A DNA stretch of 64,000 nucleotides from Desulfurococcales archaeon. Its GTDB lineage: Archaea > Thermoproteota > Thermoprotei_A > Sulfolobales > Acidilobaceae. The position numbers and the translations under genes were made by a program. The notes below the pieces were generated by a model, which was given only the letters and a program-made list of their open reading frames with translations, ran no database searches and had not been told where the DNA came from. The stretch spans positions 1-64,000 of the forward strand of contig WAOT01000058.1 of the NCBI GenBank assembly GCA_015521115.1, in the 5' to 3' direction. Below are positions 33,053 to 53,149 of this stretch, piece by piece (position 1 is the first letter of the stretch; the number at the start of each line of letters is the position of its first letter).

Positions 33053-35134
33053 TCATAGTGCCGCGCTTATGTCATGGTGCATAACTACTGGTGGAGGGGT
33101 CACGACGAGTATGTAGCCGCCCTTTAGAGTGTGGCTCATAACCGCTAGGGTTCTGTCGGGCATTCTCGGTAGCATCTCCCGGAGATCTCCTGGGACATCA
33201 AGCCTCTCCAGCTGCCCCCGCTCAGTCCTTAGGAGGATCTTATTGTTTGCAAGCTGGATTATGATGTCGTGAAGATCCTTTGGGCTGTGAGTAGCGAACA
33301 GCAGTCCTATCCCCCTCGCCCTTCCGAGCCTAGCGACCCTGCTTATCATCCCCGCCACCTGCCTGTTCGCCTCCTGCTCCTCTTGGGGGCCCTTCTCCTG
33401 GGGGAAGAACTGGTGGGCCTCGTCCAGCACGACTAGGAGTGTGGGCGTCTTCCTCCTCTCCGCGTAGGCCCTCTGCTTCCACGCGATAAGCCTCTGGAGC
33501 ATCCTATATGCCGCCGCCCTAGGCCCCTCATAGCCTCCCATGCCAGACTCGCTGGCAGGCTTGAGATCCACAACTATAGGCCAGTCCCTCTCGGCGGCTA
33601 GGCTCACGATATCCTCCCACCTCGGCTCCCCTAAGAGCCTCGTCTCTCCCCTGCAGACCTCTATGATGTCAACTATGCCGCTCTCAACAAGGCCTGAGAC
33701 CCTCCTGTAGAGGGCCTCAACAGTCCCCCTATGGGGCATAAGCCTCTCAAGCACCCCGAGGATGGTGTCCATATGGCTCGCTATGTCGATCCCTTCGAGG
33801 CGTGTGTTGGCTAAGTCCACATCCTCTCCTCCTAGGATGTGGTATGATAGTAGCTCGAGCGCTGACATTAGGGGCTGATCCTCTCCTGAATCCTTCTCCC
33901 CCCTCCTGCCACCGCCCCTAAGTGTTACAGCATATGCCAGTAGGCCTGCTGCCACTAGGGGGAGGGGAGGGTATGATCCTATAGTCTTCCTGTACTTCTC
34001 CCTCAACCTCCTCAGCAGTTCTCGGCCGTGGAGTGTGAGGCCTGGTAGGAGCCCTGTGAGCTCCTCCGGCCTGCTGAGGGTGGTGTTTATAGCGTATGGT
34101 ATGATCTCGAACGTATCAACTCCTCCCACCCTAATGATGCCACGGGGCAAGCTCCCACTCCTCTCCTCAACCTCCAAGCCTTCACCCATAGCTAGCGGCC
34201 GGATGACTCTCCCTGCATAATCGCTAATTAAGCCCCCTAGACCCTCACAGGCCCCGCTTACTGAGCGGAGGATCTCGAGGGTTACAGGAACCACTACCAC
34301 AGCCCCTCTCGGTGGGCGGACACTCTTGTAAGCCCTAGAAGCCCACTCCGGGGGCGGGTTCCCGGGTAGGGGGAGCTGGACGTAGTCCTCGTTCAAGTCT
34401 ATGACTAGAACCACAGGCCTGCCCGGGCTCCTCTTATCGCTGTACAGAGAGGCTATGGAGTTCTTGATTAGCGTAGTCTTCCCGCTCCCAGTAGTCCCAA
34501 CTATTAGGGTGTGCTGGAGGAGCGCCTTGTACGGGAGCCTAACAGGGATCCCGCCCGCCATAGGCCCCCACGGGCCGGCTAGGACGCCGAGCAGTAAGCC
34601 CTCTCCTGGGAGTCCTAGGAGCTTCTCGAGAACCTCAGGCCTTGGCTCCGCTACGGGGCTCTGGGGCTCCAGGCTTGTCACGGCGGGGACTGGCTCGCTG
34701 TCTAGACCGTAGGGGGCCTCGACCACGGGCTCCGCCTCCAAGATGGTCACAGTCGCCGCCCCAAGCGGGTCAATGTTCCCGGTATACCTGCTAATGGGCG
34801 GCTCAACACCTATACTAGCAAGTAGGTCGGCCCTCGTCACGGACTTAACCCTTAAAAGTATGATCCTAAGGCTCTTAGGGTCTACCCCCACAAGATAGTC
34901 CCCCACCCTGTGGACAGGGCTCTCCCAGGGCCTGCCAAAGTATACTTCAGGGTCGACCTCAACCTTAACGGTCTTACCAGGCCCGACCTCAATACTCCAA
35001 TACCTCGTGACCCGGCCGACTATAACGCCTAGCTCGCCAGCGACCTGGTAGGCCTTAGAGTATAAGCCTTCAAGCTTTGACGACAGATCCTCACGGCCAC
35101 GCCCTAGCAGGCCTCCAAGGTCAGGCTCCACCAC
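33053..35134 (-). CDS. herA: HerA-like ATPase (DUF87/FtsK-HerA family)
   Basis: About 693 residues. HerA hexamers pump DNA and work with NurA nuclease in double-strand-break end resection. N-terminal beta-barrel (HAS-barrel-like) region to about residue 120, Walker A IVGTTGSGKTTLI (about 215-227), VLVIDLNEDYV (about 244-254), a Walker B-like LLVVLDEAHQFFPQEKG (about 563-579), and RVARLGRARGIGLLFATHSP with an Arg-finger region. GTG 35134 is preferred over TTG 35152 because GGAAGGTG precedes it. The nurA gene is 1.1 kb upstream on the same strand, separated by one exported-protein gene. Confidence 0.82.
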   Translation of the reverse strand: MVEPDLGGLLGRGREDLSSKLEGLYSKAYQVAGELGVIVGRVTRYWSIEVGPGKTVKVEVDPEVYFGRPWESPVHRVGDYLVGVDPKSLRIILLRVKSVTRADLLASIGVEPPISRYTGNIDPLGAATVTILEAEPVVEAPYGLDSEPVPAVTSLEPQSPVAEPRPEVLEKLLGLPGEGLLLGVLAGPWGPMAGGIPVRLPYKALLQHTLIVGTTGSGKTTLIKNSIASLYSDKRSPGRPVVLVIDLNEDYVQLPLPGNPPPEWASRAYKSVRPPRGAVVVVPVTLEILRSVSGACEGLGGLISDYAGRVIRPLAMGEGLEVEERSGSLPRGIIRVGGVDTFEIIPYAINTTLSRPEELTGLLPGLTLHGRELLRRLREKYRKTIGSYPPLPLVAAGLLAYAVTLRGGGRRGEKDSGEDQPLMSALELLSYHILGGEDVDLANTRLEGIDIASHMDTILGVLERLMPHRGTVEALYRRVSGLVESGIVDIIEVCRGETRLLGEPRWEDIVSLAAERDWPIVVDLKPASESGMGGYEGPRAAAYRMLQRLIAWKQRAYAERRKTPTLLVVLDEAHQFFPQEKGPQEEQEANRQVAGMISRVARLGRARGIGLLFATHSPKDLHDIIIQLANNKILLRTERGQLERLDVPGDLREMLPRMPDRTLAVMSHTLKGGYILVVTPPPVVMHHDISAAL

Positions 35135-35241
35135 CCCTAGTACACCTTCCAAAGGTCAAGAGGTAAGCACTGTAGCCTCCCGCCCTGTTATACTACCGTG
35201 TAGGGTAATACCAGTTAACATGATAAGACCCCTACAAACCC

Positions 35242-36226: not shown

Positions 36227-37528
36227 TCACCGGGAAGCCCATAGGCCGGCGCTCCTCCATAGGTGGAGGCCCATCTCGATCTCACTCGAGTACGTGAGGG
36301 GCAGACCTGTCATTAGAGTATGTCTTGCGATCAGGGATGTTAACGCCCTGGTTAGCCCGCTACTGACCCTGTCCGCGGCGGCCACTGAGATCGGCTGTAG
36401 AGACCCCCGGACGACACTGTCCCACACCACCGGGTAGCTGGGCCTCAGGTCATGGCCTTCGAGGGCCCTGTTCGACGATGGCGAGGTCTCTGTCCTGTAG
36501 TATTTGGCTGCGCCAGGGTAATGGTTCCATTTGCCCGGGGGGATCACGATGTATTCTACCACCTTGTCTAGCTCACCAATTGGGAGTGCGGTGAACAGCA
36601 CCTCCGCCCTTATACTAGTTAACACGCGCCCCTCCCTGAGCCTATCCTGGGAGGCTATAGCCTGGTAGTAGTGGTAGAGGGCGTGGGCGTCACCGTACTG
36701 GCCTGGTGGGAGACCTCGCATGTTTTCTCCGAGGGTCTGAGCTAGCCTTGATATTATAGTGCTCCTCTCAATCCTCTTAACAACTCCGACCACAATAGCA
36801 CCTAAACGCTCGAGGCCCTCTACAGCCCTCCTCCTAGCCTTTAGGAGGGACTCCATACTCCTCCAATAGTCCTCCCTACCCGGCTGCGGCCCCCTCTGAA
36901 ATGCCATCGTGACAGGGTACACGGGCCCGTCAACAAGCACCACGGGCTGGAAACCCCTCAAAACCGCCTCCTCGACGATAGTCCTTACAGGCCCCCCTAG
37001 AGCCCAGTTCTCAAGGTCTAGCCTGAGCTCGTCTAGAACCTGCTCAACACTGTAATCAACATAGCTGTCGCCACCAGGGCTGACAACACGGAGATACCCC
37101 TCGAGGCTGGTGGGAGGCTCTGCACCAACAAGGGCAACGAAAGGTGGGCCGCCCTCAACACTATTGGATCTGATAGGGGGCCACTCCAATATCCCGCCAG
37201 GGTGCGAGACTGCAACAGCACCGACCACTACAGCGCCGAACGCCGTCCCCACGGCCCTACTGCTACTGTCAACGCCTATTATGAAGGGTTTGAGGCGTTT
37301 AAGCCTCTTAGCTATGACGTCAGCCCTCCTAGGGCCTAGGAACCTGCGTGAGAATTCTAGGGGTGAGACCCTATAGTTGCCGCCCTCCTCGACATGCCAT
37401 TTGAAGTCTATTAGCCTGTCGAGGAGCCTAACGGGTGGGGGCCTTGGGGGTAGCGTTGCAGCTGCCCTCTTTAGGGTGTCGACGGCCTCTAACACCACGC
37501 TCGAGATCAGCTCTGACACTCCCAGCAA
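36227..37528 (-). CDS. nurA: NurA-domain nuclease
   Basis: 433 residues of the NurA family, 5'-3' exonuclease/endonuclease acting with HerA. The metal-site Asp is in KPFIIGVDSSSRAVGTAFGAVV (about residue 85), and a second in PVVLVDGPVYPV (about 198-209). A long helical middle contains LKARRRAVEGLERLGAIVVGVVKRIERS, and the C-terminal HTLMTGLPLTYSSEIEMGLHLW carries the last conserved acidic residue. TTG start at 37528 with GAGGTG upstream. Same strand as herA; the pair is a standard archaeal recombination-repair unit. Confidence 0.82.
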   Translation of the reverse strand: MLGVSELISSVVLEAVDTLKRAAATLPPRPPPVRLLDRLIDFKWHVEEGGNYRVSPLEFSRRFLGPRRADVIAKRLKRLKPFIIGVDSSSRAVGTAFGAVVVGAVAVSHPGGILEWPPIRSNSVEGGPPFVALVGAEPPTSLEGYLRVVSPGGDSYVDYSVEQVLDELRLDLENWALGGPVRTIVEEAVLRGFQPVVLVDGPVYPVTMAFQRGPQPGREDYWRSMESLLKARRRAVEGLERLGAIVVGVVKRIERSTIISRLAQTLGENMRGLPPGQYGDAHALYHYYQAIASQDRLREGRVLTSIRAEVLFTALPIGELDKVVEYIVIPPGKWNHYPGAAKYYRTETSPSSNRALEGHDLRPSYPVVWDSVVRGSLQPISVAAADRVSSGLTRALTSLIARHTLMTGLPLTYSSEIEMGLHLWRSAGLWASR

Positions 37529-39965: not shown

Positions 39966-42900
39966 TTACAGTGTGCGGATAAGGCGGGCTAGGCGCCTGG
40001 TTGCCTCTTCGCTGCTAAGCCTCTCTACAGGGTCGACTGCCATCATACCACGCAAGACCGCCCTGACTCTATTATCCTCCACTAGACTAAGTGCCTCATC
40101 AAGGCGTTCAGAAGCTTCCTCCCCATCGACTACCTCCCCGGTGAGGAGGTAGAGGAGGAGCTCCCCCAGCTGGTAGACGTCCACCCTATTTTCCAGGGCC
40201 CTCGCTCTAGCCTTAACCCTTAACTCATTATAGACCTGTTCCGGCGCCCTCCAGCCCATAGTGTAGTGTTCTGAGAAGGCAGCATCCGTCTGAGTTTCGG
40301 ATGTGAGCAGTGTAGTCACGCTACTGAAGTCTCCTAGCTTAGGGGTTCCGTTGAGGAAGAAGATGTTGCCCGGCTTGATATCGCCGTGTACAACGCCACG
40401 GGAGTGAATGTATCTAAGTGCATCGGCCAGTATAACACCAATAGTTAAGACATCGTGCAGGTCAGGCTCCCACCCCGTACTTAGCTGCCACTGTAGAGAA
40501 CCGTTGTTAGCATACTCATAGACAAGCATGGGAGCTATCCGAGAGTAGGCTAGCAGCCTCACTATCCCGGGATGGCCCGGCTTCATTAGACCCCAAACAG
40601 TCTCCACCCTCCTCAAATACCCCTTAAGCCACCTGGGAGCCACGTCTCTTACCTCTCCTGAAGGCAGACCCGAATGTAGGGTCTCATCAGCTCCACCCTC
40701 AAACCACCCCCTATATTCACGGTAGACCTTGACAACGATGTCCTTACCACCCTTACTACACTTATAGGCACACCCCCAGCCCCCACACCCCAAGACGCAG
40801 CAATTCCATGACCCCCTAAGCCAGTCAGCACCTTCGAAGAGGCCTCCAAGATACCTTGGAAACCTGCCCGGCCCCGCACATCCGAAGCCCACACTTAACC
40901 CCCTGGTAATCCGAAGCGATTCAAAGTCGAGGTCGATACCAGCACCTACGAGCTCCTCATCACCAACTCCCATATCTCCAGGAGGCTTCTGCATCGTGAT
41001 AGGTTGTAGGCTACTGCCTACACCTGTAAGGGGGGCCGCCGGCTGAACCTCGATAAGTTTTAACATGCTAAGCTCGACAGCCTCTAGCTCGGGTATTCTA
41101 ACTTTGAAACTGAAACTGACGGGGACGTTACCCGCGATAGGAGTGCCAAGAGATATTTGCAGGCTCTCACAGCTTTTCGGTTGGAGAGTAAATGGGGCTT
41201 CTCCTATTACTCTGCAGCCCCCATCCTCGCAGTCTAAGGCCTCAATTATTAGTGGAATGTAAGAGTTGTTACATATTTTTAAGCTCCCAACTCGGTATAG
41301 TCCTGCTACGAAGTCGCCTTCAACCTCAATAGAAAGGGCCTTTTCTAGATATCCCCGAGGGTCTTTCCTCGCCTCCTCCCACTCGCTTACCACTATGGGG
41401 AACTCCTCTAATATTTTCCAATCTCTACTGATGGTTAGAACCCTCTTCAGGAACCTGCTGAGGCTTCTTAAGCCTGTAACGTCGAGCTTCATTACATGGT
41501 CAAGGGTGCTCTCGATCTTCTTGAGGGAATCTCTAACGTTATCCGGCCCCACACTAACGGCCCAGTCATAAATTAATTCCAGTACCGCATCAGGCTTGAG
41601 CCCAAGTAGCCCGCCTACTCCTGTAGCAGCTAAAAGCGATAGCCCATCAAAGTAGACCCTCCAAATTGCAGTCATTAGCCCATCAACATAGATCTTGTGG
41701 TCTACAAGGAACGTAGCCCATGCGAGGCACTCCCAAAAGCCCCCACAGGAGATCTTGAGATCACATTCCGGCCTCCTACCAGTTATCTCAATAGAGTCCT
41801 GGAACCCTCCAAACAGGGTAACCCTCCTCGAGAACCCTCCCACTGCCACCGTAGACCCTGCTGGGCTCCATGCAACACTCCAAACGAGGCCTCCGAGTTC
41901 CGGGCTCACCCAAAGGAGTGAACCCTCCCTATCTAGCACGTATAACCTCCTGCTCTCAGCAGTCCCAGCAGCTAGGAGCCTACCATCAGGGCTCCATGAG
42001 ACGGCAGTAACTGCTCCCTGCAGGTCAGGGCTCTCCCATACCTTATCCCCCCTTAAGTTGTAGACGAGAACCTCTCCGTGGCCACCCTCTGATGAGTCCT
42101 TCCAGCCGGTGCCAACCGCTATAAGATCGCCCTCCGGGCTCCATGAGACGCTATACCATACCCCCCGGAACCCCTGGAACTCTCTAACCACCCTACCACT
42201 ATCGTCCAAGAATGTTAGAAGCCCCTTCTCAGCTACAGCAGCAATCCTCGACCCATCAGGAGACCATGAGACGTCACGAACCCACCCGTTGTAAAAGGCT
42301 GTAGTCCAGCGTATACCCCCTCCTCTATCAACCATGACGACACGGCCATTCCTCTCTCCCTTAGAACCACCCCTTCCCAGCCCCACCGCGAGCCTAGACC
42401 CGTCGGGGCTCCACCGTAGTCTCATAACCCAACCTCTAAGATCCGGGCTACTCCATAGACGGTAAGCATCCTCACTATATGACGCGACAAAGCCATGATA
42501 GTCCCCCATCCTGTCCACGAATCGGTACCCGGCGGCTATCTCGTCCCCAGTAGGGCTCCAGTCTAATGAGAGGACACTCATGTATTCCTCCCGGATCTCC
42601 CCGGTTATCCTACTACTAACTTCCATGATTTGTGTGCGACCGGAATTGCCAAGTACATATGCTAGCTTATAACCGTCAGGACTCCATGATATGTCGTATA
42701 CTGTATCCCCGAGATCCTCGCTCTCCCATTCTAACCTAATCCTTGACCTATGTAAGACCGCGTACCGGGATCTAGCATCTATAGAGGAGAGGTATGCTTT
42801 TACCGGCGGTCTCCACCTCTCGATATCATCTCTAAGACTATCAACACTAATATCTTCACTATCAAGTGCCAGGAGAGCTGTTGAATAGACAGGCTCACAG

Positions 42901-43031
42901 TATAGCCTCTTAATTCTATCCAAATAGGTACGAGCAGCCTCCTCACCAATAAGTCTAGAGAGGCGGGCTAAAGCTAGGCTCTCCAAATCTCTGATATCGG
43001 GATCATTATGTTTTTGCCCATAACTCTTCAA
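39966..43031 (-). CDS. Cytoplasmic WD40 propeller-Ser/Thr kinase fusion
   Basis: 1021 residues and no signal or membrane helix. Residues about 1-95 are helical. About 98-420 hold seven WD40-type blades, each with a variant of DVSWSPDGSRIAAG. About 430-720 form a helical/beta middle region. The C-terminal kinase (about 735-1021) has a Cys-rich glycine loop VLGCGGWGCAYKC, IVVKVYR lysine, YEYANNGSL hinge, HGDIKPGN in place of HRD, GDFSS in place of DFG, and GWRAPEQ. The HGD and DFS changes make it atypical; activity is uncertain. It is a soluble counterpart of the receptor kinase at 13849 and lies just downstream of the stalk-protein genes. TTG start at 43031. Confidence 0.82.
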   Translation of the reverse strand: MKSYGQKHNDPDIRDLESLALARLSRLIGEEAARTYLDRIKRLYCEPVYSTALLALDSEDISVDSLRDDIERWRPPVKAYLSSIDARSRYAVLHRSRIRLEWESEDLGDTVYDISWSPDGYKLAYVLGNSGRTQIMEVSSRITGEIREEYMSVLSLDWSPTGDEIAAGYRFVDRMGDYHGFVASYSEDAYRLWSSPDLRGWVMRLRWSPDGSRLAVGLGRGGSKGERNGRVVMVDRGGGIRWTTAFYNGWVRDVSWSPDGSRIAAVAEKGLLTFLDDSGRVVREFQGFRGVWYSVSWSPEGDLIAVGTGWKDSSEGGHGEVLVYNLRGDKVWESPDLQGAVTAVSWSPDGRLLAAGTAESRRLYVLDREGSLLWVSPELGGLVWSVAWSPAGSTVAVGGFSRRVTLFGGFQDSIEITGRRPECDLKISCGGFWECLAWATFLVDHKIYVDGLMTAIWRVYFDGLSLLAATGVGGLLGLKPDAVLELIYDWAVSVGPDNVRDSLKKIESTLDHVMKLDVTGLRSLSRFLKRVLTISRDWKILEEFPIVVSEWEEARKDPRGYLEKALSIEVEGDFVAGLYRVGSLKICNNSYIPLIIEALDCEDGGCRVIGEAPFTLQPKSCESLQISLGTPIAGNVPVSFSFKVRIPELEAVELSMLKLIEVQPAAPLTGVGSSLQPITMQKPPGDMGVGDEELVGAGIDLDFESLRITRGLSVGFGCAGPGRFPRYLGGLFEGADWLRGSWNCCVLGCGGWGCAYKCSKGGKDIVVKVYREYRGWFEGGADETLHSGLPSGEVRDVAPRWLKGYLRRVETVWGLMKPGHPGIVRLLAYSRIAPMLVYEYANNGSLQWQLSTGWEPDLHDVLTIGVILADALRYIHSRGVVHGDIKPGNIFFLNGTPKLGDFSSVTTLLTSETQTDAAFSEHYTMGWRAPEQVYNELRVKARARALENRVDVYQLGELLLYLLTGEVVDGEEASERLDEALSLVEDNRVRAVLRGMMAVDPVERLSSEEATRRLARLIRTL

Positions 43032-43290: not shown

Positions 43291-46200
43291 TTAAATCATA
43301 TATAATTGTTTATATCTTGACAAGAGAGCATATCCGAATAAGACTGACATTATTACGACTATAGCCGCAAATATCATTAACAGCCCTCTCCGGCCAGTGC
43401 TCTCCGTTTTTTCTGTCTGGCCTGTACTAGTGCTGTTCATAGCTGGTAGTGTCTCGTTAGATGTAATGGGAGTCTTCTGGGTTTGTTGGGCTGATTTAAG
43501 ACTGTTTAGTATGCTTATTAGCTCGCTCGTCCTGTTTAGTTTTAGCCTGATCTTCCCTAGACTGGTCTGCAATATAATGGTGTTATCTGTCACCTGGTAT
43601 ATTGAGGCGTTGAGTTGTAGGAGGCTGGCCTGGATTATACCTATTCTAGTGTGCATTGATAAAACTTTATTTTTAAGATCAAGCATGGTGGCGTTTATAT
43701 GAGTTAACTCTCCAAGTATTTTGTCGATATTTATTCTTAGTTCCCCGATGTTTGTATCTAAAATTACTGTATTATTATATATGTTTATTATTTTAAGTTT
43801 AAGAAGTGATGAGTTTACGGCTATGTTGCCCACTGCAGTAGTTATTAGCATTGTGTTGTTAGTGACATTGAGGACTATACTGTTACTTTCATTGATTAAT
43901 TCTTTTATATAATTTACATTTGATGTTATGTTGCCTAGACTAGTCTGGATGATTGCTACTCTACCCCTAACGGCGGCTATTACCGGGGATAACATGCTAA
44001 TATCACTCATTATTATAGAATTATTTTCTTTTATGTATTTTAACGAATTATTAATAATATCGTGTTTGTGCTCCACTAATATCATCAGTTCACCGATACT
44101 AGTATTTAACGTTATCGTCCCATTCCCTACCCGGACAATGGACGCTTGAATATTGTCAAGCTTACAGATTATCGCCCCTAGAACAGTTGATATGTTGATT
44201 ACTGTTTTGTTTACAGACTCTATGGTGTCGGCTATTTTGTTCAGTTCTGCGATGATAGGCCCAATTTTTGAACTGTTTATTAGAAGGATGTTACCTATGA
44301 TCCTGTACTGGTTCTCTCTGATATCGAGATATGAGGTGTTAACCTGTGTCAGGCTCATGTTAGACAGGTCTAGGATTTGGGAGGTGTCCCCCTGTATTTC
44401 TAGGAGTATGTGGATGGACGTGTTTACCCTGTTTTGGAGTTGTCGTAGGACTTCTGATATACTACTCGCGGTTGCTGTAATGTTGGATGTTAGGGTGTTG
44501 ATCGCCTCGTAGAGGCCTGTGTAGTATGATAGGGCTACCGTCTTGTTGACTGGCTGGTGGGTAAACCTGATTAGGGCGTATTCCTCGGTAGTGGTGTTTT
44601 CGTATTCTGCGTGTACTCCTAGGATTACGTTTCCGGGCTCCTCTAGCTTTACGTGTGCTATGTATAGTTTTGAGCCTCCGACCTCTAGCGTTTCAACTCC
44701 TGTGAGGCTCTCGGGTGGAGTCGCGTTTATCGATAGTTGTGGCTCCACTACTGTGTTGTTGTATGTGAAGTATACTATAATATCCGCCGTCCTACCGGGC
44801 TCCCACTGGAGGTCGCCACCGATTATGTGGGCCTCGACATGTGGGGGAACCTCGATGATCGGGAAGGTGATCTGCTTGATAAGGAGTGGGTAGTCGGCCC
44901 TAAACACGGTCACATAGTATTTACCGGCCTCCGAGGGGGCTGATAGGGTTATTACTCCATCGTAACCGGTATAGCCCCTCGCCACTACGCTGCCGTTTGG
45001 CATAATTATCGAGACTAGGGTGTTCGGGACGGGCTCCCCAGAATTATTATTCACAGTGAACACTATCTCATTCCCATCGGACTCGATACCTAGTTGGAAG
45101 CTGAGCACGGACTTTGGTGGAACCCAGGGCCTGAGGACGGGATCTCCTAGGAGGTTGTGTATCAGCACGTCCTTCTTACTAGCATAGTCGATGTTAACGT
45201 CGTGCGAATTATTGTATATTAGCTGGCTGGCAAAGAACGCGTCCCCCACAGTGGGGTAGTCGCCCGATAAGAGCTCTCTCCAGAAGAAGTATTCAAACTC
45301 CTGATCCCATAGACCACCCGGCTCTGTCCAGCCGACCATGTAATAGCTTATCCTACTCGAGGCGATCACTGCTGAGGCCATCTTCCTCAGAGACTCCTCC
45401 GCATACGTCTGATAGAAGCTGTAGTCGTAGAACCCTGTGAGGCACCCGTCATTGTATTGGATCCCGCCGGCATGGGTTTCTGGGATACCGTCTCTCGATA
45501 TGAACGCGTACCAGCTCATCTCACCACTCTCTGGGACACCGTCTCCATCATCACTGCTCCACACCTTCCTAGCCTGTTCATATTGGCTGCCATGGCCGCC
45601 AGAGAGTATGTAAGATGGCGCCTCTCTGAGCATAGCGGTGGCGTTCTCCCATGTTAGGGCCATGTCGGACTCATAGGTGCTAGGGCTTAGGCCTCCCCTC
45701 TCGTAGAGCCTGTAGTAGCCCTGAACTGGGTAGGGGGAGGATGGAAGGTCGTGCTGTATTAAGTATACATGTGGTGCTGCGCCATCTGTCTTATCCCATC
45801 CCAGGTTGTTTTCGTTTTCATAGTTCAGTATAGCCGCCATGCTCAGTAGAGTGCCGTTAGTCCCTCCCTCCTCCCACGAGAGGATGTTGGACACTACTCC
45901 TCTCAGGTCTGAGGGGGTGTCTACAGGTATCCTACCTACTATGATATCGGGTACGACATCTGGTATAGGCTCAACGTTGACTTCTGGGTAGTTATTACCA
46001 TTATGATCCTCCTGTTCCAGGAGTTTCCCGTCCCCGTCTGGATCCCAGTTTCCGTCTAGCCAGGCGTAGTAGTGGTCGGTTGCCTTGTAATAATCCTCGC
46101 CGTAGGCAGACCAGTCATCCTCAGCGTAGAAGTATGCCGGTGGTATCAGGTCTGCATCCCCTACCAGGAGGAGGTAGTCCGCCCCCTGGTTGAAGGCCAT

Positions 46201-47058
46201 GTCCCGTGCGAACGCCCTGATCTTGTCCGCCAGGGAGTCACCACTGTAACTACTGTTAACATAAGATATGTTGTACACGAGCACGTTATAGCCCATCGCA
46301 GTCCTAGCAATAATATAGGGGCGAAGAGGTTCAAGGAACGAGTCGTTTCCTAGGAGCAGGACAATAGTTCTAATGTTGTCCACAACCGGCGGCCAGTCAT
46401 TGCTTATAACGTGTGTGGGGTCAACCGATAAGGCAAGCCATGCTGGTAGGAAGACCTTCTCATCGACGGGGACGTCTGCTTCAACCTGGAGGGTGACGCT
46501 GTAGATTATAGCTTGGTTAATGCCCGTGTACTTGACAGGATAGACCCTAACTCCGAGCAGTAAGCCACCTGGATAGTGGCCTAACCAGTATTCACACGGC
46601 TTTGAGGGGTAAGGAAACGTGATAGCTGGCATGTCAACCCCTATCGTCCCATTAAATTTTCCTGGGAGGAGTGGCTGTGGGGGTCTGACTCTTTCCACGC
46701 TTCCTGTTAAGTTGACCGTGATAGGCTCTCCCACCTCACAGAGGACACTCAAGTTCTCTGTGTTCTCAGGTAAGACGTAGTAGGTGACGTACTGGGGTGT
46801 GGGAGGGTATCCTGGCTGGAGTGCCAGTTTTAGGCCCTTGACTGTTATATACTGGGATCCATGGCTTCCCTCTACTATGCTATATCCTAAGCTGTTAGGG
46901 TCTACTGTTATCTGCCACTTCTTCCTTATCATTGTTGGGGATTCCGGTTGGGCCGTACTACTTGATTGCTGGGCCAGTACTGGTTGGATAATATTTAATA
47001 TTATTATGCTTAGTAGCAACATTAATTTTATTTTATCATATTCACCCATCTGCGACAC
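43291..47058 (-). CDS. Secreted gingipain-like (peptidase C25) protein on a coiled-coil stalk
   Basis: 1255 residues: signal peptide (about 8-29), propeptide-like region, then a C25 caspase-fold protease (about 225-640) with TIVLLLGNDSFLEPLRPYI, YLLLVGDADLIPPAYFY, catalytic His in SGGHGSQY (about 488) and catalytic Cys in NDGCLTGFYD (about 540). Asp-rich DPDGDGK and DDGDGVPESGE loops look calcium-binding. A beta Ig-like domain follows (about 735-840), then a stalk of about 340 residues built of heptads with T-x-hydrophobic-G motifs, and a C-terminal membrane helix (about 1227-1246) with a basic tail. Very rich in N-glycosylation sequons. It ends 3 bases after the upstream paralogue stop, so the two are co-transcribed. 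The start overlaps neither neighbour. Confidence 0.85.
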   Translation of the reverse strand: MSQMGEYDKIKLMLLLSIIILNIIQPVLAQQSSSTAQPESPTMIRKKWQITVDPNSLGYSIVEGSHGSQYITVKGLKLALQPGYPPTPQYVTYYVLPENTENLSVLCEVGEPITVNLTGSVERVRPPQPLLPGKFNGTIGVDMPAITFPYPSKPCEYWLGHYPGGLLLGVRVYPVKYTGINQAIIYSVTLQVEADVPVDEKVFLPAWLALSVDPTHVISNDWPPVVDNIRTIVLLLGNDSFLEPLRPYIIARTAMGYNVLVYNISYVNSSYSGDSLADKIRAFARDMAFNQGADYLLLVGDADLIPPAYFYAEDDWSAYGEDYYKATDHYYAWLDGNWDPDGDGKLLEQEDHNGNNYPEVNVEPIPDVVPDIIVGRIPVDTPSDLRGVVSNILSWEEGGTNGTLLSMAAILNYENENNLGWDKTDGAAPHVYLIQHDLPSSPYPVQGYYRLYERGGLSPSTYESDMALTWENATAMLREAPSYILSGGHGSQYEQARKVWSSDDGDGVPESGEMSWYAFISRDGIPETHAGGIQYNDGCLTGFYDYSFYQTYAEESLRKMASAVIASSRISYYMVGWTEPGGLWDQEFEYFFWRELLSGDYPTVGDAFFASQLIYNNSHDVNIDYASKKDVLIHNLLGDPVLRPWVPPKSVLSFQLGIESDGNEIVFTVNNNSGEPVPNTLVSIIMPNGSVVARGYTGYDGVITLSAPSEAGKYYVTVFRADYPLLIKQITFPIIEVPPHVEAHIIGGDLQWEPGRTADIIVYFTYNNTVVEPQLSINATPPESLTGVETLEVGGSKLYIAHVKLEEPGNVILGVHAEYENTTTEEYALIRFTHQPVNKTVALSYYTGLYEAINTLTSNITATASSISEVLRQLQNRVNTSIHILLEIQGDTSQILDLSNMSLTQVNTSYLDIRENQYRIIGNILLINSSKIGPIIAELNKIADTIESVNKTVINISTVLGAIICKLDNIQASIVRVGNGTITLNTSIGELMILVEHKHDIINNSLKYIKENNSIIMSDISMLSPVIAAVRGRVAIIQTSLGNITSNVNYIKELINESNSIVLNVTNNTMLITTAVGNIAVNSSLLKLKIINIYNNTVILDTNIGELRINIDKILGELTHINATMLDLKNKVLSMHTRIGIIQASLLQLNASIYQVTDNTIILQTSLGKIRLKLNRTSELISILNSLKSAQQTQKTPITSNETLPAMNSTSTGQTEKTESTGRRGLLMIFAAIVVIMSVLFGYALLSRYKQLYMI
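43555..44271 (-). repeat. Coiled-coil stalk of the C25 protease: registered T-x-h-G motifs
   Basis: Motifs SKIG, TVLG, TSIG, TSLG, TAVG, TNIG, TRIG and TSLG occur with successive spacings of 28, 28, 53, 35, 28, 35 and 28 residues. All are multiples of seven except 53 (49 plus a 4-residue stutter). The first and last motif codons are 705 bases apart. Confidence 0.8.
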
Positions 47059-47060
47059 CC

Positions 47061-48689
47061 TTAACCCTCAAAGTCATAGTAGGGACGCTTCCTCATGGCC
47101 TGGCCCACTCCCCCTATAACCACAGCTGCGAGCCCCGTCAGGAGGAGTACTCCACCTCTCCCAGGACTGTCCCTGTAGTTACTACTGGCCTGGGGCTCTA
47201 TGCCTAGAGACTGCCCAGTAATGTTATTTACGATGTTTTGAAGCAGTGAGTTCAGATTGTCGATATCGAGAGCTATTTGCCCGAGGGTCGTGTTTAGCAG
47301 TATGAGCCTATCATTGGCTTCTAGTACAGAGGCGTTCAAGGCGGTCAGGTTAGCCATAACGTATCCTAGGTTTGTCTGCAGTCTCAACACTCCACCTGAT
47401 AGGTCGTCAATTGATGCGTTTATGTCGGTAGAGCGCTTTAGGGCACTGTCTACTGTTATGGAGAGGTTTGTGACATTACTATTGATTGGTGCTAGGGTTG
47501 CCTCGATGCTTTCCGTTTCACCTAGTAGGAGTGTCAGGTTTACTTTGACCTCACCTAGGCTTGTCTTTATAAGTGCCGTGTTGTTTTCAACGGCCACTAG
47601 TGTGCCGAGGATGTCAGTCGTTTTGTTTGCTATTAGGGAGACTTCCGCTTTTATCTCTCCTATCCTAGTGAGTATGGTCACTGTAGTCTCATTGATATTT
47701 GTAATTACTGGATCCAGCTCCTCTAAAGTTGCTTTAATGCCTGTAACATTTCGGGAGATGAGTGAGAGTAAATCGACAATATCCCTGCTCGAGGTGTTTA
47801 TAGCAACCATTATCTGCCCCACACTCGTATTTATGATTGCAACGCCGTTTGCTACAGCTGTTAGTGTTGCGTTTACCTGGTCTAGAGTAGCCTGAATAGT
47901 GCCGAGATCCGTCTCTATTAGTATAGTGTTATTTAGAATACTTGATATTTTAGCGTTTAACTGTGTCAAATTGGCTAGGACGTATCCCATGCTAGTGTTT
48001 ATTGCGAGGAGCTGGCCGAGGATCTCGTACTGGTTATCCTCTAATTCTAGCGTGGAGGTATTTATAGCCTGGAGGATCTCCCTATCAACATCGTAGATGA
48101 GGGCTGTCCTACCTTGTAGGTCGAAGAGTAGGTATAAGCTCTCGTTTACTTGTGACGATAGGTTAGAGAGCCGTAGGCTTATCTCATCGAGCCTGGCCAT
48201 AATGCTACTATAATGTTCGTCGAGCGTCTGGGAGAGATCCTCAAAGTAGTTTTCCGCTAGTGTGGTGTTAAGGGGCTCAGGTACGAACCTTACCATGGTA
48301 AACCTTGTATCTGTAAACCCTGCATAGGAGGCTCTTACACTTAGGATCACATAGCCAGGGCTATCAAGTTTAACCTCTACAATATAGACGGTAGATGACC
48401 CTATACTGACACTATTCACCCCTTGAAGTGCGGAGCCCGGTACTGTTTCCACGGTAAGATTATCTGGTACGACGACTGAATTGTTGAACAAGAAGTATAG
48501 GAGTATTGATGCTGTCTCACCGACATACCAGGCGTTCGAGTCTCCTGACAAGTTTATCGCGAACAGCTGGTATGTAGCGCCCTCTGCAACTAGTGCCGGA
48601 GGACTATGTGTGTTCAGGGGCGGGGCTAGAAATAATAAGATAAATATCATTAAATATGTAATTTTTAAATTAGTCTTAACAGTATTCAA
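47061..48689 (-). CDS. Secreted coiled-coil stalk protein, protease-free paralogue
   Basis: 542 residues: signal peptide (about 8-28), an Ig-like beta domain (about 50-145) matching that of the C25 protein (W-x-x-G-x-TA, NNxVVxP, VKLxxPGxVIL), a long heptad stalk (about 150-490) and a C-terminal membrane helix (about 513-531, GGVLLLTGLAAVVIGGVG) with a basic end. Sequons are abundant. It is equivalent to the C-terminal half of its neighbour with the protease removed. It lies directly upstream in the same transcription unit, so partners are likely. By analogy with the tetrabrachion-protease complex of Staphylothermus it may be a surface scaffold; no sequence homology to tetrabrachion is claimed. 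Confidence 0.78.
   Translation of the reverse strand: MNTVKTNLKITYLMIFILLFLAPPLNTHSPPALVAEGATYQLFAINLSGDSNAWYVGETASILLYFLFNNSVVVPDNLTVETVPGSALQGVNSVSIGSSTVYIVEVKLDSPGYVILSVRASYAGFTDTRFTMVRFVPEPLNTTLAENYFEDLSQTLDEHYSSIMARLDEISLRLSNLSSQVNESLYLLFDLQGRTALIYDVDREILQAINTSTLELEDNQYEILGQLLAINTSMGYVLANLTQLNAKISSILNNTILIETDLGTIQATLDQVNATLTAVANGVAIINTSVGQIMVAINTSSRDIVDLLSLISRNVTGIKATLEELDPVITNINETTVTILTRIGEIKAEVSLIANKTTDILGTLVAVENNTALIKTSLGEVKVNLTLLLGETESIEATLAPINSNVTNLSITVDSALKRSTDINASIDDLSGGVLRLQTNLGYVMANLTALNASVLEANDRLILLNTTLGQIALDIDNLNSLLQNIVNNITGQSLGIEPQASSNYRDSPGRGGVLLLTGLAAVVIGGVGQAMRKRPYYDFEG
47280..47996 (-). repeat. Coiled-coil stalk of the paralogue: same register as the C25 stalk
   Basis: Motifs TSMG, TDLG, TSVG, TRIG, TSLG, TNLG and TTLG occur at spacings 28, 28, 53, 35, 63 and 28. 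The 63 equals 28+35 with one motif lost. First and last motif codons are 705 bases apart, as in the neighbour, and a LxPVI segment sits at the same place in both 53-residue intervals. Confidence 0.8.
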
Positions 48690-48836: not shown

Positions 48837-51101
48837 TTAGATATCGCATGTTGGGCATCCGCCACTATATTCCTCGTGTACTAGCATTATGTCTTGGTCG
48901 CTTATCCTTAGCCATGTGTAGATGTGTTTGTCCCGTATTCTTGTAGGTCTGGGTATAGTTTTGAGGGCCCGCTCGAGCTCTTCTCCTCCTTGGAGTACCT
49001 GCTCCTTCCTGCTCTTGTCCCTGTATATGGTTACCCCCTTGCACCCGAGTTTCCACGCGGTTATTATTGCCTGTCTGATTTCCTGTGGTGTGGTGTTTGA
49101 TGGCATGTTTATTGTCTTGCTTACAGCGTTGTCTGTCCACCTCTGGAATGCCGCTTGGATGAGGACGTGGTATTTCCAGTTGATCTCTAGCGCTGTTGGG
49201 AGCCCCTTCTTCAGGTCATTCGGCGCCCATGGCGCCCACCTTATCCCTCCCCCGTGCCTAGCTATTTCTAGGAGTGTCTCCCTGTTGAGCATGCCGTTCT
49301 CTTCGAGCCACTGTCTTAGGTGTGGGTTTACCTCTATCCATGTCCCTATCGTTGAGCGCCTCAGGTATACTAGGGCGAAGAAGGGCTCTATACTACTGCT
49401 CACCCCGGCTATTATGCTTATTGAGCCTGTTGGGGCTATCGTAGTGACTGTCGCATTCCTAGTCCCCTCCCTCATCTCCCTCCTGAGGATGTCCCAGTCG
49501 GGCTCAGGCCTGTCATCCACTAGCCTCCTTACCTCCTGGCTGATCTCGTCTTGGGAGTAAAGGGTGTTTGCGGGTCTCTGTGGTTCGAAGTTGAACCGGC
49601 CCTGCCTGTGTATGCTCGTGGGGAATGCGGGGTACGGGCCCCTCTCTACCGATAGGAGGTTGCTAGCCCTCCTTGCGTGGTATTCTATGAACTCCATCAG
49701 CTTATCGGCGAAGAAGACAGCGTCTGGACTGTCGTAGGGTATGCCTAGGAGGGCGAGCATGTCCGCCCATCCCATGACGCCGAGGCCCACCTTCCTTGTG
49801 CGGAGGACTGCCTCCCGGATCCTCTTGTCGGGGTACCATGAGACCTCTATAACGTCGTCTAGGAACCTCACCGCCAGCTCTACGTCCCTCGCGAGCTCCT
49901 CCCACCTCACTATCCCTTTATCCGGGTCTACGTAGCGTCCGAGGTTTATGCTTCCGAGGTTGCAGGCCTCCCAGTCTAGGAGGGGAGTCTCACCGCACGG
50001 GTTTGTAGCGTGTATCCTCCCCAGGCTTGGTGTAGGGTTGTGCCTGTTGATCTCGTCTAGAAATACTACGCCCGGGTCTCCACTTGCCCAGGCGCACTCC
50101 GCGACCCTATCCAACAGTTTCCCCGTATCAATCCATCCGACCTGCCCACATTCCGCTGCAACTTTTAAGGGGTCTTCGGCCGTCACTGCGTCAGGGCATT
50201 TGTGGGGGTCTATGAGGGGCCACTTCTCCAGGGTGAAGAGCCCGTCATGCGCTCCAACACTGATATTGAAGCTCTCAAGCCTCCCCTCACCCCCGCACTT
50301 GGACTCCACAAACTCCATAATGTCTGGGTGCCAGTCCTGTAGTATACCCATCATGGCAGCCCTCCTCTTCCCTCCCTCCCTCAGCACGTCGGCAGCCGTG
50401 TCGAAGAGCCTCATGAAACTGACAGGCCCACTACTCCTACCACCCGTCCCAGAGATCGGGGCGCCCCTGGGTCGGAGTGGTGAGAAGTCATATCCAGCGC
50501 CAGCCCCGCTCTTGAACACCCAGGCCGAGACCCTGACAGCGTCAAGGATAGAGTCTATGTCATCCCTCAGGGGGACGACGAAGCACGCCGCAAGCTGGGG
50601 GTAGCGCGTGCCGGAGTTCATAAGAGTCGGGCTGTTAGGGAGAAAGCGCAGACCACTAATCAGGTGGTAGAACTCTCTCCACACCTCATCATGCCTACCA
50701 TAACGGTACTCCGGAAGGCTAACGTAGCTCACAACACGCCTCACCATCATGTCAGGCGTCTCACCGACCCTACCATCCCTAGCCTGGAGGTAGCGGGCCC
50801 GGAGGAGGCGTAGGGCCTGCCAGCTGAGTCGGCGCTCGATCCCGACTGGCTTGAAGGCCTTAGACCAGTCGCCGAGGGCCTCATAGTATATCCGGGCGAG
50901 ATCGATCCTAGCGGCAAGCCTGAGCCAAACACTCTCAACAGCCCCCCATAGGGCTAAAGTGGCCTCCAAGCGTTCCAGTAAGTCCAAGCCAGAAGCCTCC
51001 TCTGAGAGCTTATCTAGTTCTGCAAGGACAGGTGCGGGGTCGATGCGGAGGCTGCGGGAGGCCTCCTCCACTAAGGATCTGGCGGGTATCAACGTAGACA
51101 C
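48837..51101 (-). CDS. nrdJ: Adenosylcobalamin-dependent (class II) ribonucleotide reductase
   Basis: 754 residues. Reduces ribonucleotides to deoxyribonucleotides without oxygen dependence. Motifs: NSPTLMNSGTRYPQLAACFVVPL (split; first redox Cys about 173), FKSGAGAGYDFSPLRPRGAPI, NPCGETPLLDWEACNLGSINL (active-site Cys and Glu, about 367), and late TIAPTGSISIIAGVSSSIEPFFAL. The C-terminal tail GGCPTCDI supplies the reducing CxxC pair. Short for the family but with all core residues. GTG start at 51101. Pairs functionally with ThyX. Confidence 0.93.
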   Translation of the reverse strand: MSTLIPARSLVEEASRSLRIDPAPVLAELDKLSEEASGLDLLERLEATLALWGAVESVWLRLAARIDLARIYYEALGDWSKAFKPVGIERRLSWQALRLLRARYLQARDGRVGETPDMMVRRVVSYVSLPEYRYGRHDEVWREFYHLISGLRFLPNSPTLMNSGTRYPQLAACFVVPLRDDIDSILDAVRVSAWVFKSGAGAGYDFSPLRPRGAPISGTGGRSSGPVSFMRLFDTAADVLREGGKRRAAMMGILQDWHPDIMEFVESKCGGEGRLESFNISVGAHDGLFTLEKWPLIDPHKCPDAVTAEDPLKVAAECGQVGWIDTGKLLDRVAECAWASGDPGVVFLDEINRHNPTPSLGRIHATNPCGETPLLDWEACNLGSINLGRYVDPDKGIVRWEELARDVELAVRFLDDVIEVSWYPDKRIREAVLRTRKVGLGVMGWADMLALLGIPYDSPDAVFFADKLMEFIEYHARRASNLLSVERGPYPAFPTSIHRQGRFNFEPQRPANTLYSQDEISQEVRRLVDDRPEPDWDILRREMREGTRNATVTTIAPTGSISIIAGVSSSIEPFFALVYLRRSTIGTWIEVNPHLRQWLEENGMLNRETLLEIARHGGGIRWAPWAPNDLKKGLPTALEINWKYHVLIQAAFQRWTDNAVSKTINMPSNTTPQEIRQAIITAWKLGCKGVTIYRDKSRKEQVLQGGEELERALKTIPRPTRIRDKHIYTWLRISDQDIMLVHEEYSGGCPTCDI

Positions 51102-51204: not shown

Positions 51205-52125
51205 TTATCTCCGCCTATATAGCATACTAATGTAGAGTGCTTGATCTGCGGAGAGCTCCACCCGACCGTCGTCTAGGAGTCTGCCCTCCCCTAGCGGCTC
51301 TAGGGCTTTAGCATACCACCTTAACCAGCCTGCCCTCCCAAGGTCTCCGCCCAGTACTATCTTCGGGCCTCTCTGAGTGTTCAGAGCGCTAGTCACGAGC
51401 CGGACTGCCTCCTCCATTGAAGGGCCGCCAGGCGGTATGAGGGGTATCAGAGTGTGACGTCTATGGAGCTCGTGGATGTAGTATGCCCCCGCCCTCTCAT
51501 CACCGTAGTGGAGGCCCGCCATTACGAGGTATGCCGTCTCCGGCTTGAAGCCTCCTGTTGCGTTGAGGAGCACGACCCACTCGCTTCCAGAGTGTATGGT
51601 CGACCTTATCTCGTCTACCACAATCCCGTATAGCTCGAGGCCGCCCCTCCAAACGTTCTCATGCCAGCCCGGAACCAGCTGCATTTCAACCCTCCTGTTA
51701 CCTATCCTCTCCCTAAGATACCTCCGTAGTGTCCTCCCGGAGATCAGGCCTGGGGCAGTCTCTGTGGGTAGTAGGAGGATCTTATCGATGAAACTATGAT
51801 CCCGGGGCCAAGCCCTCAGCCATGGCAGTAATGCGTTAAGCTCCGCACTTAGCAGTGCAGGCTCCTTTGTGAGGAAGTAGAGTATGAGGTCTTCGAGGGC
51901 TGAGGGGCGCTCAACCCTAGCCATGCACTCCACATCCTCCCCAGTCCCTGGCCTGGTAAACCCGCATTCCCTAAGTAGGGAGGCAGCCTCCCGGATCTCA
52001 TCGTTGCTGAACCCCTCAGGACAGCCGTCACCCGTGGACAGACATCTCTCTATACGCGTTAGAGTGTTTCTCACAATGCTCGTCCCAACAGTCACAATAT
52101 GATAGAACCTCACCTTTACAGCCAA
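51205..52125 (-). CDS. CARF-domain protein, Cas_APE2256/ring-nuclease-like
   Basis: About 306 residues. The N-terminus begins RFYHIVTVGTSIVRN, then LLPTETAPGLISGRTLRRYL, and the clear CARF core VVLLNATGGFKPETAYLVMAGL followed by YYIHE. These match the APE2256 CARF family, which includes Sulfolobus Sso1393, a ring nuclease that destroys cyclic oligoadenylate made by type III CRISPR complexes. The C-terminal ~90 residues are a helical domain ending in a basic tail. The frame is open to 52449, but that extension overlaps the divergent gene; TTG 52125 with GGGTG 7 bases upstream is preferred, GTG 52113 is possible. No cas genes or CRISPR are nearby. Confidence 0.75.
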   Translation of the reverse strand: MAVKVRFYHIVTVGTSIVRNTLTRIERCLSTGDGCPEGFSNDEIREAASLLRECGFTRPGTGEDVECMARVERPSALEDLILYFLTKEPALLSAELNALLPWLRAWPRDHSFIDKILLLPTETAPGLISGRTLRRYLRERIGNRRVEMQLVPGWHENVWRGGLELYGIVVDEIRSTIHSGSEWVVLLNATGGFKPETAYLVMAGLHYGDERAGAYYIHELHRRHTLIPLIPPGGPSMEEAVRLVTSALNTQRGPKIVLGGDLGRAGWLRWYAKALEPLGEGRLLDDGRVELSADQALYISMLYRRR

Positions 52126-52237
52126 GTCGATGCACCCGTACACTTTCCAGTTATCATGAAGTAAAATAAGGGTTCGCCGTCTAAACGGCTTAATGCTGCC
52201 CGGCACACGTAGGAAGTACACTGGTGGGTGCTCAACC

Positions 52238-53149
52238 GTGTTTAGGGTCGTCCTCCACGACCCCGCGGTCGAGAAGATCCTTGACCCTATTGCTCTAATA
52301 GAGGATATAAGGGTCACCCTAACCTCCGACGCCGCGGAGGCCCCCAGGCACGGTGTTAGCCTCGGGGACACATGGTACGCCTCCATGACGAGCATGGGGC
52401 TAGGGCTCATAACGACGAAGATGGTCGGGGTATACCTGAGGAACCCCACTATAGGCCTCCCCCTAGTTAGGAGTATATCAGCAGTCTACCACCAGGACAC
52501 TGGAGAGCCCCTAATACTCTATGAGGCGAACAAGGCTACAGCCTACAGGACTGCCGCAGCGACAGCCCTAGCACTCCAACTCCTAGGAGCTAGAGAGGGA
52601 GGTATCTTGGGGATCATCGGAGCTGGGGTACAGGGCAGGCACCACGGCCTCCTCCTCAAGGAAGTGTTCAAGCCGCGCATAGTCCTAGTGGCTAGTAGGA
52701 CGAGGGAGAAGGCGGAATCCCTAGCAAGAGAGCTCGGTGGTAGAGCTGTAGAGAGGAGGGAACTGCTATCCGAGGCCGATATTATAGTTTCAGCGACAAC
52801 AAGCACAACCCCAGTCGTTGAGGGGGCCCTCCTCAGACCGGGTGCTATAGTTGCAAGCGTGGGAGCCCCTAGCCCTGTACGGGAGCTCGACGAGGAGACT
52901 GGGAAGAGGGGGGTTTGCCTCCTGGCGGACACGAGGGAGGGGGTTCTAAGGGAGTCCGAGGACTATCGGGGCTTCGTGAGGGTGGTTGACCTGGCGGAAG
53001 CCTTGAAGGGTGAAGAGTGTAGGGCGGGGGAGGTTAAGGTGTATAAGAGTGTTGGGAGAAGCCTTTTCGACCACGCTGTTAGCGTGCAGCTAGTAAGGAA
53101 GCTCTTCAACTACGACCCCTATAAGCACGTAAAGAGGGTTGAGGGCTAG
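52238..53149 (+). CDS. Ornithine cyclodeaminase/mu-crystallin family dehydrogenase
   Basis: About 303 residues. NAD(P)-dependent family that includes ornithine cyclodeaminase, alanine dehydrogenase of archaeal type and pyrroline reductases. Conserved ITTKMVGVYLRNP with substrate Lys, YEANKATAYRTAAATALA with substrate Arg, Rossmann loop LGIIGAGVQGRHHGLLL, IVSATTSTTPVVEG and GAPSPVRELDEE. Substrate cannot be assigned. GTG 52238 with GGTGGGTG upstream is preferred to ATG 52193. It is divergent from the CARF gene and its end overlaps the convergent gene by 4 bases. Confidence 0.85.
   Translation: MFRVVLHDPAVEKILDPIALIEDIRVTLTSDAAEAPRHGVSLGDTWYASMTSMGLGLITTKMVGVYLRNPTIGLPLVRSISAVYHQDTGEPLILYEANKATAYRTAAATALALQLLGAREGGILGIIGAGVQGRHHGLLLKEVFKPRIVLVASRTREKAESLARELGGRAVERRELLSEADIIVSATTSTTPVVEGALLRPGAIVASVGAPSPVRELDEETGKRGVCLLADTREGVLRESEDYRGFVRVVDLAEALKGEECRAGEVKVYKSVGRSLFDHAVSVQLVRKLFNYDPYKHVKRVEG

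What the first reader, a model, noticed from the sequence alone, without database searches (positions are those of the whole stretch)
43291..48689. Stalk-borne gingipain-like protease and a protease-free twin with exactly matched coiled-coil register
Two adjacent co-oriented genes encode exported proteins with the same Ig-like domain, long heptad stalk and C-terminal membrane helix; one carries a C25 protease in front. T-x-hydrophobic-G motifs punctuate both stalks at 28-28-53-35-28-35-28 and 28-28-53-35-63-28 residues. Both totals are 235, and first-to-last motif codons are 705 bases apart in each. The sequences differ widely yet there is not one net insertion or deletion, and the single 4-residue stutter is in the same interval. 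That suggests the stalks pack side by side in register, perhaps as a hetero-oligomer holding a protease away from the membrane, as the unrelated tetrabrachion complex does.
Basis: partly seen in the sequence, partly recalled or inferred. Interest (0 to 1): 0.88.

Follow-up and report, generated by a model that had tools for sequence, protein, structure and literature searches.

The report
Archaeal surface protease with stalk twin
A heat-loving archaeon carries two neighbouring genes for surface proteins with the same long stalk, one topped by a gingipain-type protease and one not; the matched stalks are best explained by gene duplication plus the length constraint of a coiled coil, and whether the two assemble together is still open.

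Summary
The two genes are real, adjacent and co-oriented (43291-47058 and 47061-48689, minus strand). Protein 1 is signal peptide, C25 (gingipain-family) cysteine protease with His489/Cys539, Big-like domain, Ig-like domain, about 345-residue heptad stalk and C-terminal membrane helix. Protein 2 has the same Ig-stalk-membrane half without the protease. Motif spacings and the 235-residue (705-base) totals check out, with 31% identity and no gap over 260 residues. Two corrections: protein 1's first motif is S-type (SKIG), and a one-residue insertion sits at that motif, so the proximal 80 residues are one residue out of register. Related stalks occur on C25, clostripain-like, beta-propeller, Ig-only and S-layer-like proteins; the profile's best solved match is Sulfolobus SlaB. 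Other stalk orthologues do gain and lose residues: about 4.5 indels were expected where the pair shows none (p about 0.01, post hoc). The length match is somewhat unusual, but descent plus coiled-coil constraint explains most of it. No second pair was found, so co-variation could not be tested; hetero-oligomerisation stays plausible and unproven. A low-confidence monomer model drew beta-hairpins at the motifs, so a continuous coiled coil is likely but not certain.

The parts
43291..47058 (-). Protein 1: stalk-borne C25 protease, 1255 aa; likely start ATG at 47049 with a GGGTG Shine-Dalgarno-like stretch upstream
46972..47046 (-). Protein 1 signal peptide
   Evidence: hydrophobic N-terminus
45130..46347 (-). 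Peptidase C25 domain (aa 238-643), E 1.3e-33
45592..45594 (-). catalytic His489 (GGHGS)
   Evidence: invariant in four aligned homologues
45442..45444 (-). catalytic Cys539 (GCLTG), aligned with the Cys of gingipain R's DVACVNGD segment
44851..45111 (-). Big_1/bMG-like domain, below Pfam cut-off
44533..44826 (-). Protein 1 Ig-like domain, homologous to that of protein 2
44284..44523 (-). Protein 1 proximal stalk (aa 846-925), offset 697 to protein 2
43492..44283 (-). Protein 1 motif-punctuated heptad stalk (aa 926-1189), offset 698 to protein 2
43324..43395 (-). Protein 1 C-terminal membrane helix
47061..48689 (-). Protein 2: protease-free twin, 542 aa, first gene of the pair
48270..48557 (-). 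Protein 2 Ig-like domain (aa 45-140), confident beta-sandwich model
48009..48251 (-). Protein 2 proximal stalk (aa 147-227)
47214..48008 (-). Protein 2 motif-punctuated heptad stalk (aa 228-492)
47469..47480 (-). Decayed sixth motif of protein 2 (SNVT), in register with TNIG of protein 1
47097..47153 (-). Protein 2 C-terminal membrane helix

Best explanation
The locus is a two-gene operon of surface-anchored stalk proteins. Both are exported, end in a membrane helix and carry a SlaB-like module: Ig-like domain, about 345-residue heptad stalk (about 50 nm if fully helical, by inference), membrane helix. A duplication of that module and its fusion behind a C25 protease with a Big-like domain produced protein 1; protein 2 kept the plain module. 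Protein 1 holds a gingipain-type cysteine protease away from the membrane at about the height of the envelope layer, probably to digest outside proteins or trim surface proteins. Equal motif spacing is inherited from the duplication and kept by the coiled coil's low tolerance of insertions. By analogy with SlaB the stalk is probably trimeric. Protein 2 may be a plain anchor, or a partner in mixed trimers. Shown from sequence: architecture, homology of the two halves, catalytic residues, spacing. Inferred: co-transcription, fusion, oligomer state, substrate, mixed assembly.
For: C25 domain E 1.3e-33 with His/Cys invariant in homologues and profile matches to gingipains R and K at 8e-12 to 4e-10. 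Ig-stalk halves match at 6e-72, next relatives at 6e-17. The nearest C25 relatives, from five genomes only, lack this stalk: four continue into other repeats and a membrane helix, the fifth has a C-terminus without one, so the fusion looks specific to this lineage. The profile of 12 Ig-stalk proteins finds SlaB (8qox_B, E 1.4e-10, coiled coil plus membrane helix) as best solved match, followed by trimeric coiled coils of reovirus sigma-1 and, further down, a bacterial trimeric adhesin. Heptad period 3.51-3.52. The module is reused with other heads: clostripain-like, beta-propeller, Ig-only, S-layer-like. About half of the C25 proteins examined in the order (19 of 36) end in a coiled-coil stalk, nearly all followed by a detectable membrane helix.
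Against: The monomer model of protein 2, low confidence in the stalk (pLDDT about 30-57), draws beta-hairpins at the motifs rather than a continuous helix. The stalks carry recurrent Gly, NG-type turns and a few prolines. The C25 front model is too weak to use (mean pLDDT 37). SlaB and the other coiled-coil matches could owe part of their score to heptad composition. Indel conservation is somewhat above the orthologue background, which simple descent does not predict.
Confidence: 0.72

Rival explanations
1. In-register hetero-oligomer: proteins 1 and 2 form mixed coiled-coil trimers (or laterally packed stalks), so their lengths are locked together and protease copies are diluted by plain subunits.
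For: Adjacent and co-oriented; the only two proteins with a run of T-x-h-G motifs found in this genome; no indel over 260 residues where about 4.5 are expected (p about 0.01); polar core positions coincide more than chance, 5 against 1.8, p 0.015; stalk of protein 2 is acidic (net -23), of protein 1 near neutral (+2).
Against: Shared descent alone gives matched spacing and matched core polar sites. One-residue insertion at motif 1 shifts the proximal stalk. Interhelical e/g charges are too sparse to discriminate. No second pair to test co-variation.
Confidence: 0.27
2. Equal height without contact: both proteins are separate homo-oligomers that must span the same gap under one S-layer, so stalk length is set by the layer.
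For: SlaB-like anchors link the membrane to the canopy in Sulfolobus (PMC10903991). Length conservation above background.
Against: Other membrane-anchored coiled-coil proteins of the same genome have very different stalks, about 100 to about 730 residues.
Confidence: 0.2
3. The motif-punctuated region is not a continuous coiled coil but a segmented alpha/beta fibre in which each T-x-h-G forms a hairpin turn.
For: Model with strand-turn-strand at each motif; NG/GD/DN enriched at -10/-9, hydrophobics at -7 and +4 besides the heptad positions.
Against: Model confidence is low; heptad periodicity is continuous; a coiled-coil trimer in the PDB (reovirus sigma-1) aligns with the profile and has similar Leu-Gly-Glu stretches.
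Confidence: 0.22

Closest known systems
SlaB, S-layer membrane anchor of Sulfolobus (PDB 8qox, PMC10903991)
   Same: Ig-like beta-sandwich, coiled coil, C-terminal membrane helix; significant profile match
   Different: [quoted passage not shown] here one Ig domain and about 345 residues of stalk; no slaA neighbour, instead a protease-bearing paralogue
Tetrabrachion with STABLE protease of Staphylothermus marinus (PMC5744192)
   Same: Surface stalk of a hyperthermophilic archaeon that holds a protease off the membrane
   Different: Tetrabrachion is a right-handed undecad tetramer with a separate subtilisin bound to it; here heptads (period 3.51-3.52) and a C25 protease in the same polypeptide
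Gingipains (peptidase family C25) of Porphyromonas
   Same: C25 catalytic domain with His/Cys pair
   Different: Archaeal, membrane-anchored on a stalk; substrate specificity unknown
Other stalk-anchored C25 and clostripain-like proteases of the same order (L058, L062, L089, L097)
   Same: Enzyme head, Ig-like domain, T-x-h-G heptad stalk, membrane helix
   Different: Different C25 subfamily (E about 1e-4 to this domain, or no match), shorter stalks, no adjacent protease-free twin detected

Membership tests
Peptidase C25 | Domain match above curated cut-off | tested here: met
   117 bits against cut-off 23
Peptidase C25 | Catalytic His and Cys | tested here: met
   His489 and Cys539 invariant among aligned homologues; Cys aligned to gingipain R's
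Peptidase C25 | Proteolytic activity | not testable with these tools
   needs an enzyme assay
SlaB | Ig-like domain(s), coiled coil, C-terminal membrane helix | tested here: met
   protein 2 has one Ig domain, SlaB three
SlaB | Operon with slaA | tested here: not met
   neighbours are a protease paralogue, a ribonucleotide reductase and a WD40-kinase
SlaB | Trimer that anchors the S-layer lattice | not testable with these tools
   no multimer prediction offered
Tetrabrachion | Eleven-residue (3.67) right-handed coiled coil | tested here: not met
   period 3.51-3.52; power at 3.667 is 0.5-0.7 against 10.5-27 at 3.5
STABLE protease | Subtilisin-family protease bound to the stalk | tested here: not met
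   protease here is C25 and part of the same chain

The most novel reading that the evidence does not exclude
A length-locked hetero-oligomeric archaeal stalk, in which a protease-bearing and a protease-free subunit co-assemble in register so that the number of active sites per stalk is set by subunit ratio.
Probability: 0.25. Interest if true: 0.65.

Novelty: new variant of a known kind. Interest (0 to 1): 0.46.

Why it matters
It extends the single classic case of a stalk-held archaeal protease (tetrabrachion/STABLE) to a fused gingipain-type enzyme on a SlaB-like stalk, and shows that one stalk module is reused under many surface enzymes in this order. If mixed assembly were proven, it would give a direct handle on how archaea tune enzyme density at the cell surface.

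Tried and rejected
Contamination of the contig: rejected, TmcA in the window is 79% identical to a genus member. Close homologues of the pair in genus, family, order, class, an even sample of the phylum and named genomes: none. Tetrabrachion-type hendecads: rejected by periodicity. Interhelical charge complementarity: uninformative, one or two charged pairs. Structure model of the C25 front: mean pLDDT 37, not used. Fold search with the protein 2 model: only weak Ig-type matches, none at E <= 0.001. Beta-layer precedent (PMC4786415): needs insertions of 2 or 6 residues, which these spacings mostly lack. Literature on a T-x-h-G stalk: nothing found in the held library.

Full report
The finding concerns two minus-strand genes. 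Gene order in transcription is protein 2 (47061-48689, 542 aa), then protein 1 (43291-47058, 1255 aa). The stop of the first is 11 nt from the likely ATG start of the second, which has a GGGTG stretch upstream. They look like one operon; co-transcription itself was not tested.

Protein 1 has a signal peptide, a C25 peptidase domain at 238-643 (E 1.3e-33), a weak Big_1/bMG-like domain, an Ig-like domain, a stalk and a C-terminal membrane helix. His489 and Cys539 are invariant in the four aligned homologues, and the profile of that alignment matches gingipains R and K. Protein 2 is the same Ig-stalk-helix half alone.

The motif arithmetic is right: 28-28-53-35-28-35-28 and 28-28-53-35-63-28, 235 residues and 705 bases in both. 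The first motif of protein 1 is SKIG. Each stalk has seven T-x-h-G against fewer than one expected by shuffling. Hydrophobic periodicity peaks at 3.52 and 3.51 and a/d positions are 79-89% aliphatic, with T at f and G at b. The stalks share 80 of 260 residues without a gap. The missing sixth motif of protein 2 is present as a decayed SNVT in register.

The register is not perfect. The best ungapped offset is 697 for residues 846-929 and 698 for 930-1189, so protein 1 carries one extra residue exactly at the first motif. The linkers from last motif to membrane helix differ by about 11 residues.

The spacing has to be judged against descent. The two halves match each other at 6e-72 and everything else at 6e-17 or weaker. 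Seventeen comparison pairs of stalks from related genomes, orthologous or nearly so, gave 42 indels for about 2840 inferred substitutions. By that rate the whole stalk should show 5.6 indels and shows 2 (p 0.08); the motif-to-motif part should show 4.5 and shows 0 (p 0.011). The pairs are not all independent and the window was chosen after the fact, so this is suggestive only. Ig-only stalk orthologues at 33-39% identity do carry indels, while beta-propeller ones at 53% carry none.

The stalk type is shared. In the same family it sits under clostripain-like, beta-propeller, tandem-Ig and S-layer-like heads. About half of the C25 proteins examined in the order end in a coiled-coil stalk, but none has an adjacent stalk-only twin that the scan detected. 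The closest relatives of this particular C25 domain come from five genomes and lack the stalk, so its fusion to the stalk is likely a local event (inference). In the window's own genome the other profile matches that look like membrane-anchored stalk proteins (a multihaem cytochrome, a subtilisin and an Ig-headed giant coil) have no run of these motifs.

Best match in solved structures for the Ig-stalk profile is SlaB of Sulfolobus (8qox_B, E 1.4e-10, coiled coil and membrane helix; named 'conserved membrane protein' in the file, its identity as SlaB follows from its length and from knowledge of that entry), then trimeric coiled coils of reovirus sigma-1 and, further down, a bacterial trimeric adhesin. 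SlaB is a trimer with beta-sandwich domains, a coiled coil and a membrane helix (PMC10903991). A SlaB-like trimeric stalk is therefore the best working model. Against a simple coiled coil, the monomer model of protein 2 is confident only for the Ig domain and draws low-confidence hairpins at the motifs, and the profile of 59 motif instances shows turn-like NG/GD residues at -10/-9.

Mechanism: protein 1 most likely displays a gingipain-type protease at the level of the envelope layer on a SlaB-like stalk; protein 2 is its protease-free paralogue. Mixed oligomers are plausible (about 0.25) and untested. Compared with tetrabrachion, which uses a right-handed undecad tetramer and a separate subtilisin (PMC5744192), this works similarly but is not a member of that family.

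Noticed in passing
window 39966-43031 and 13849-17955: Two proteins combine WD40-type beta-propellers with a Ser/Thr protein kinase domain.
   Followed up: partly
window 48837-51101: Second adenosylcobalamin-dependent ribonucleotide reductase, about 48% identical to those of the genus; the genome holds another, longer copy on contig C13.
   Followed up: partly
window 33053-35152 and 36227-37528: HerA-like ATPase and NurA-domain protein close together, both distant from curated equivalogs.
   Followed up: no
window 51205-52449: CRISPR-associated Cas_APE2256 / TIGR02619 domain protein.
   Followed up: no
L062 1251-4685 and 4786-8529: Another pair of adjacent co-oriented surface proteins: a C25 protease with a T-x-h-G stalk and a second large protein that also ends in a short helical stretch and membrane helix; the stalks look unmatched.
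   Followed up: partly
L156 2568-4775, L157 4063-9102, L158 3286-6258 (own genome): Multihaem cytochrome, subtilisin-like protease and Ig-headed protein with a coil of about 730 residues, apparently membrane-anchored in the same way.
   Followed up: partly
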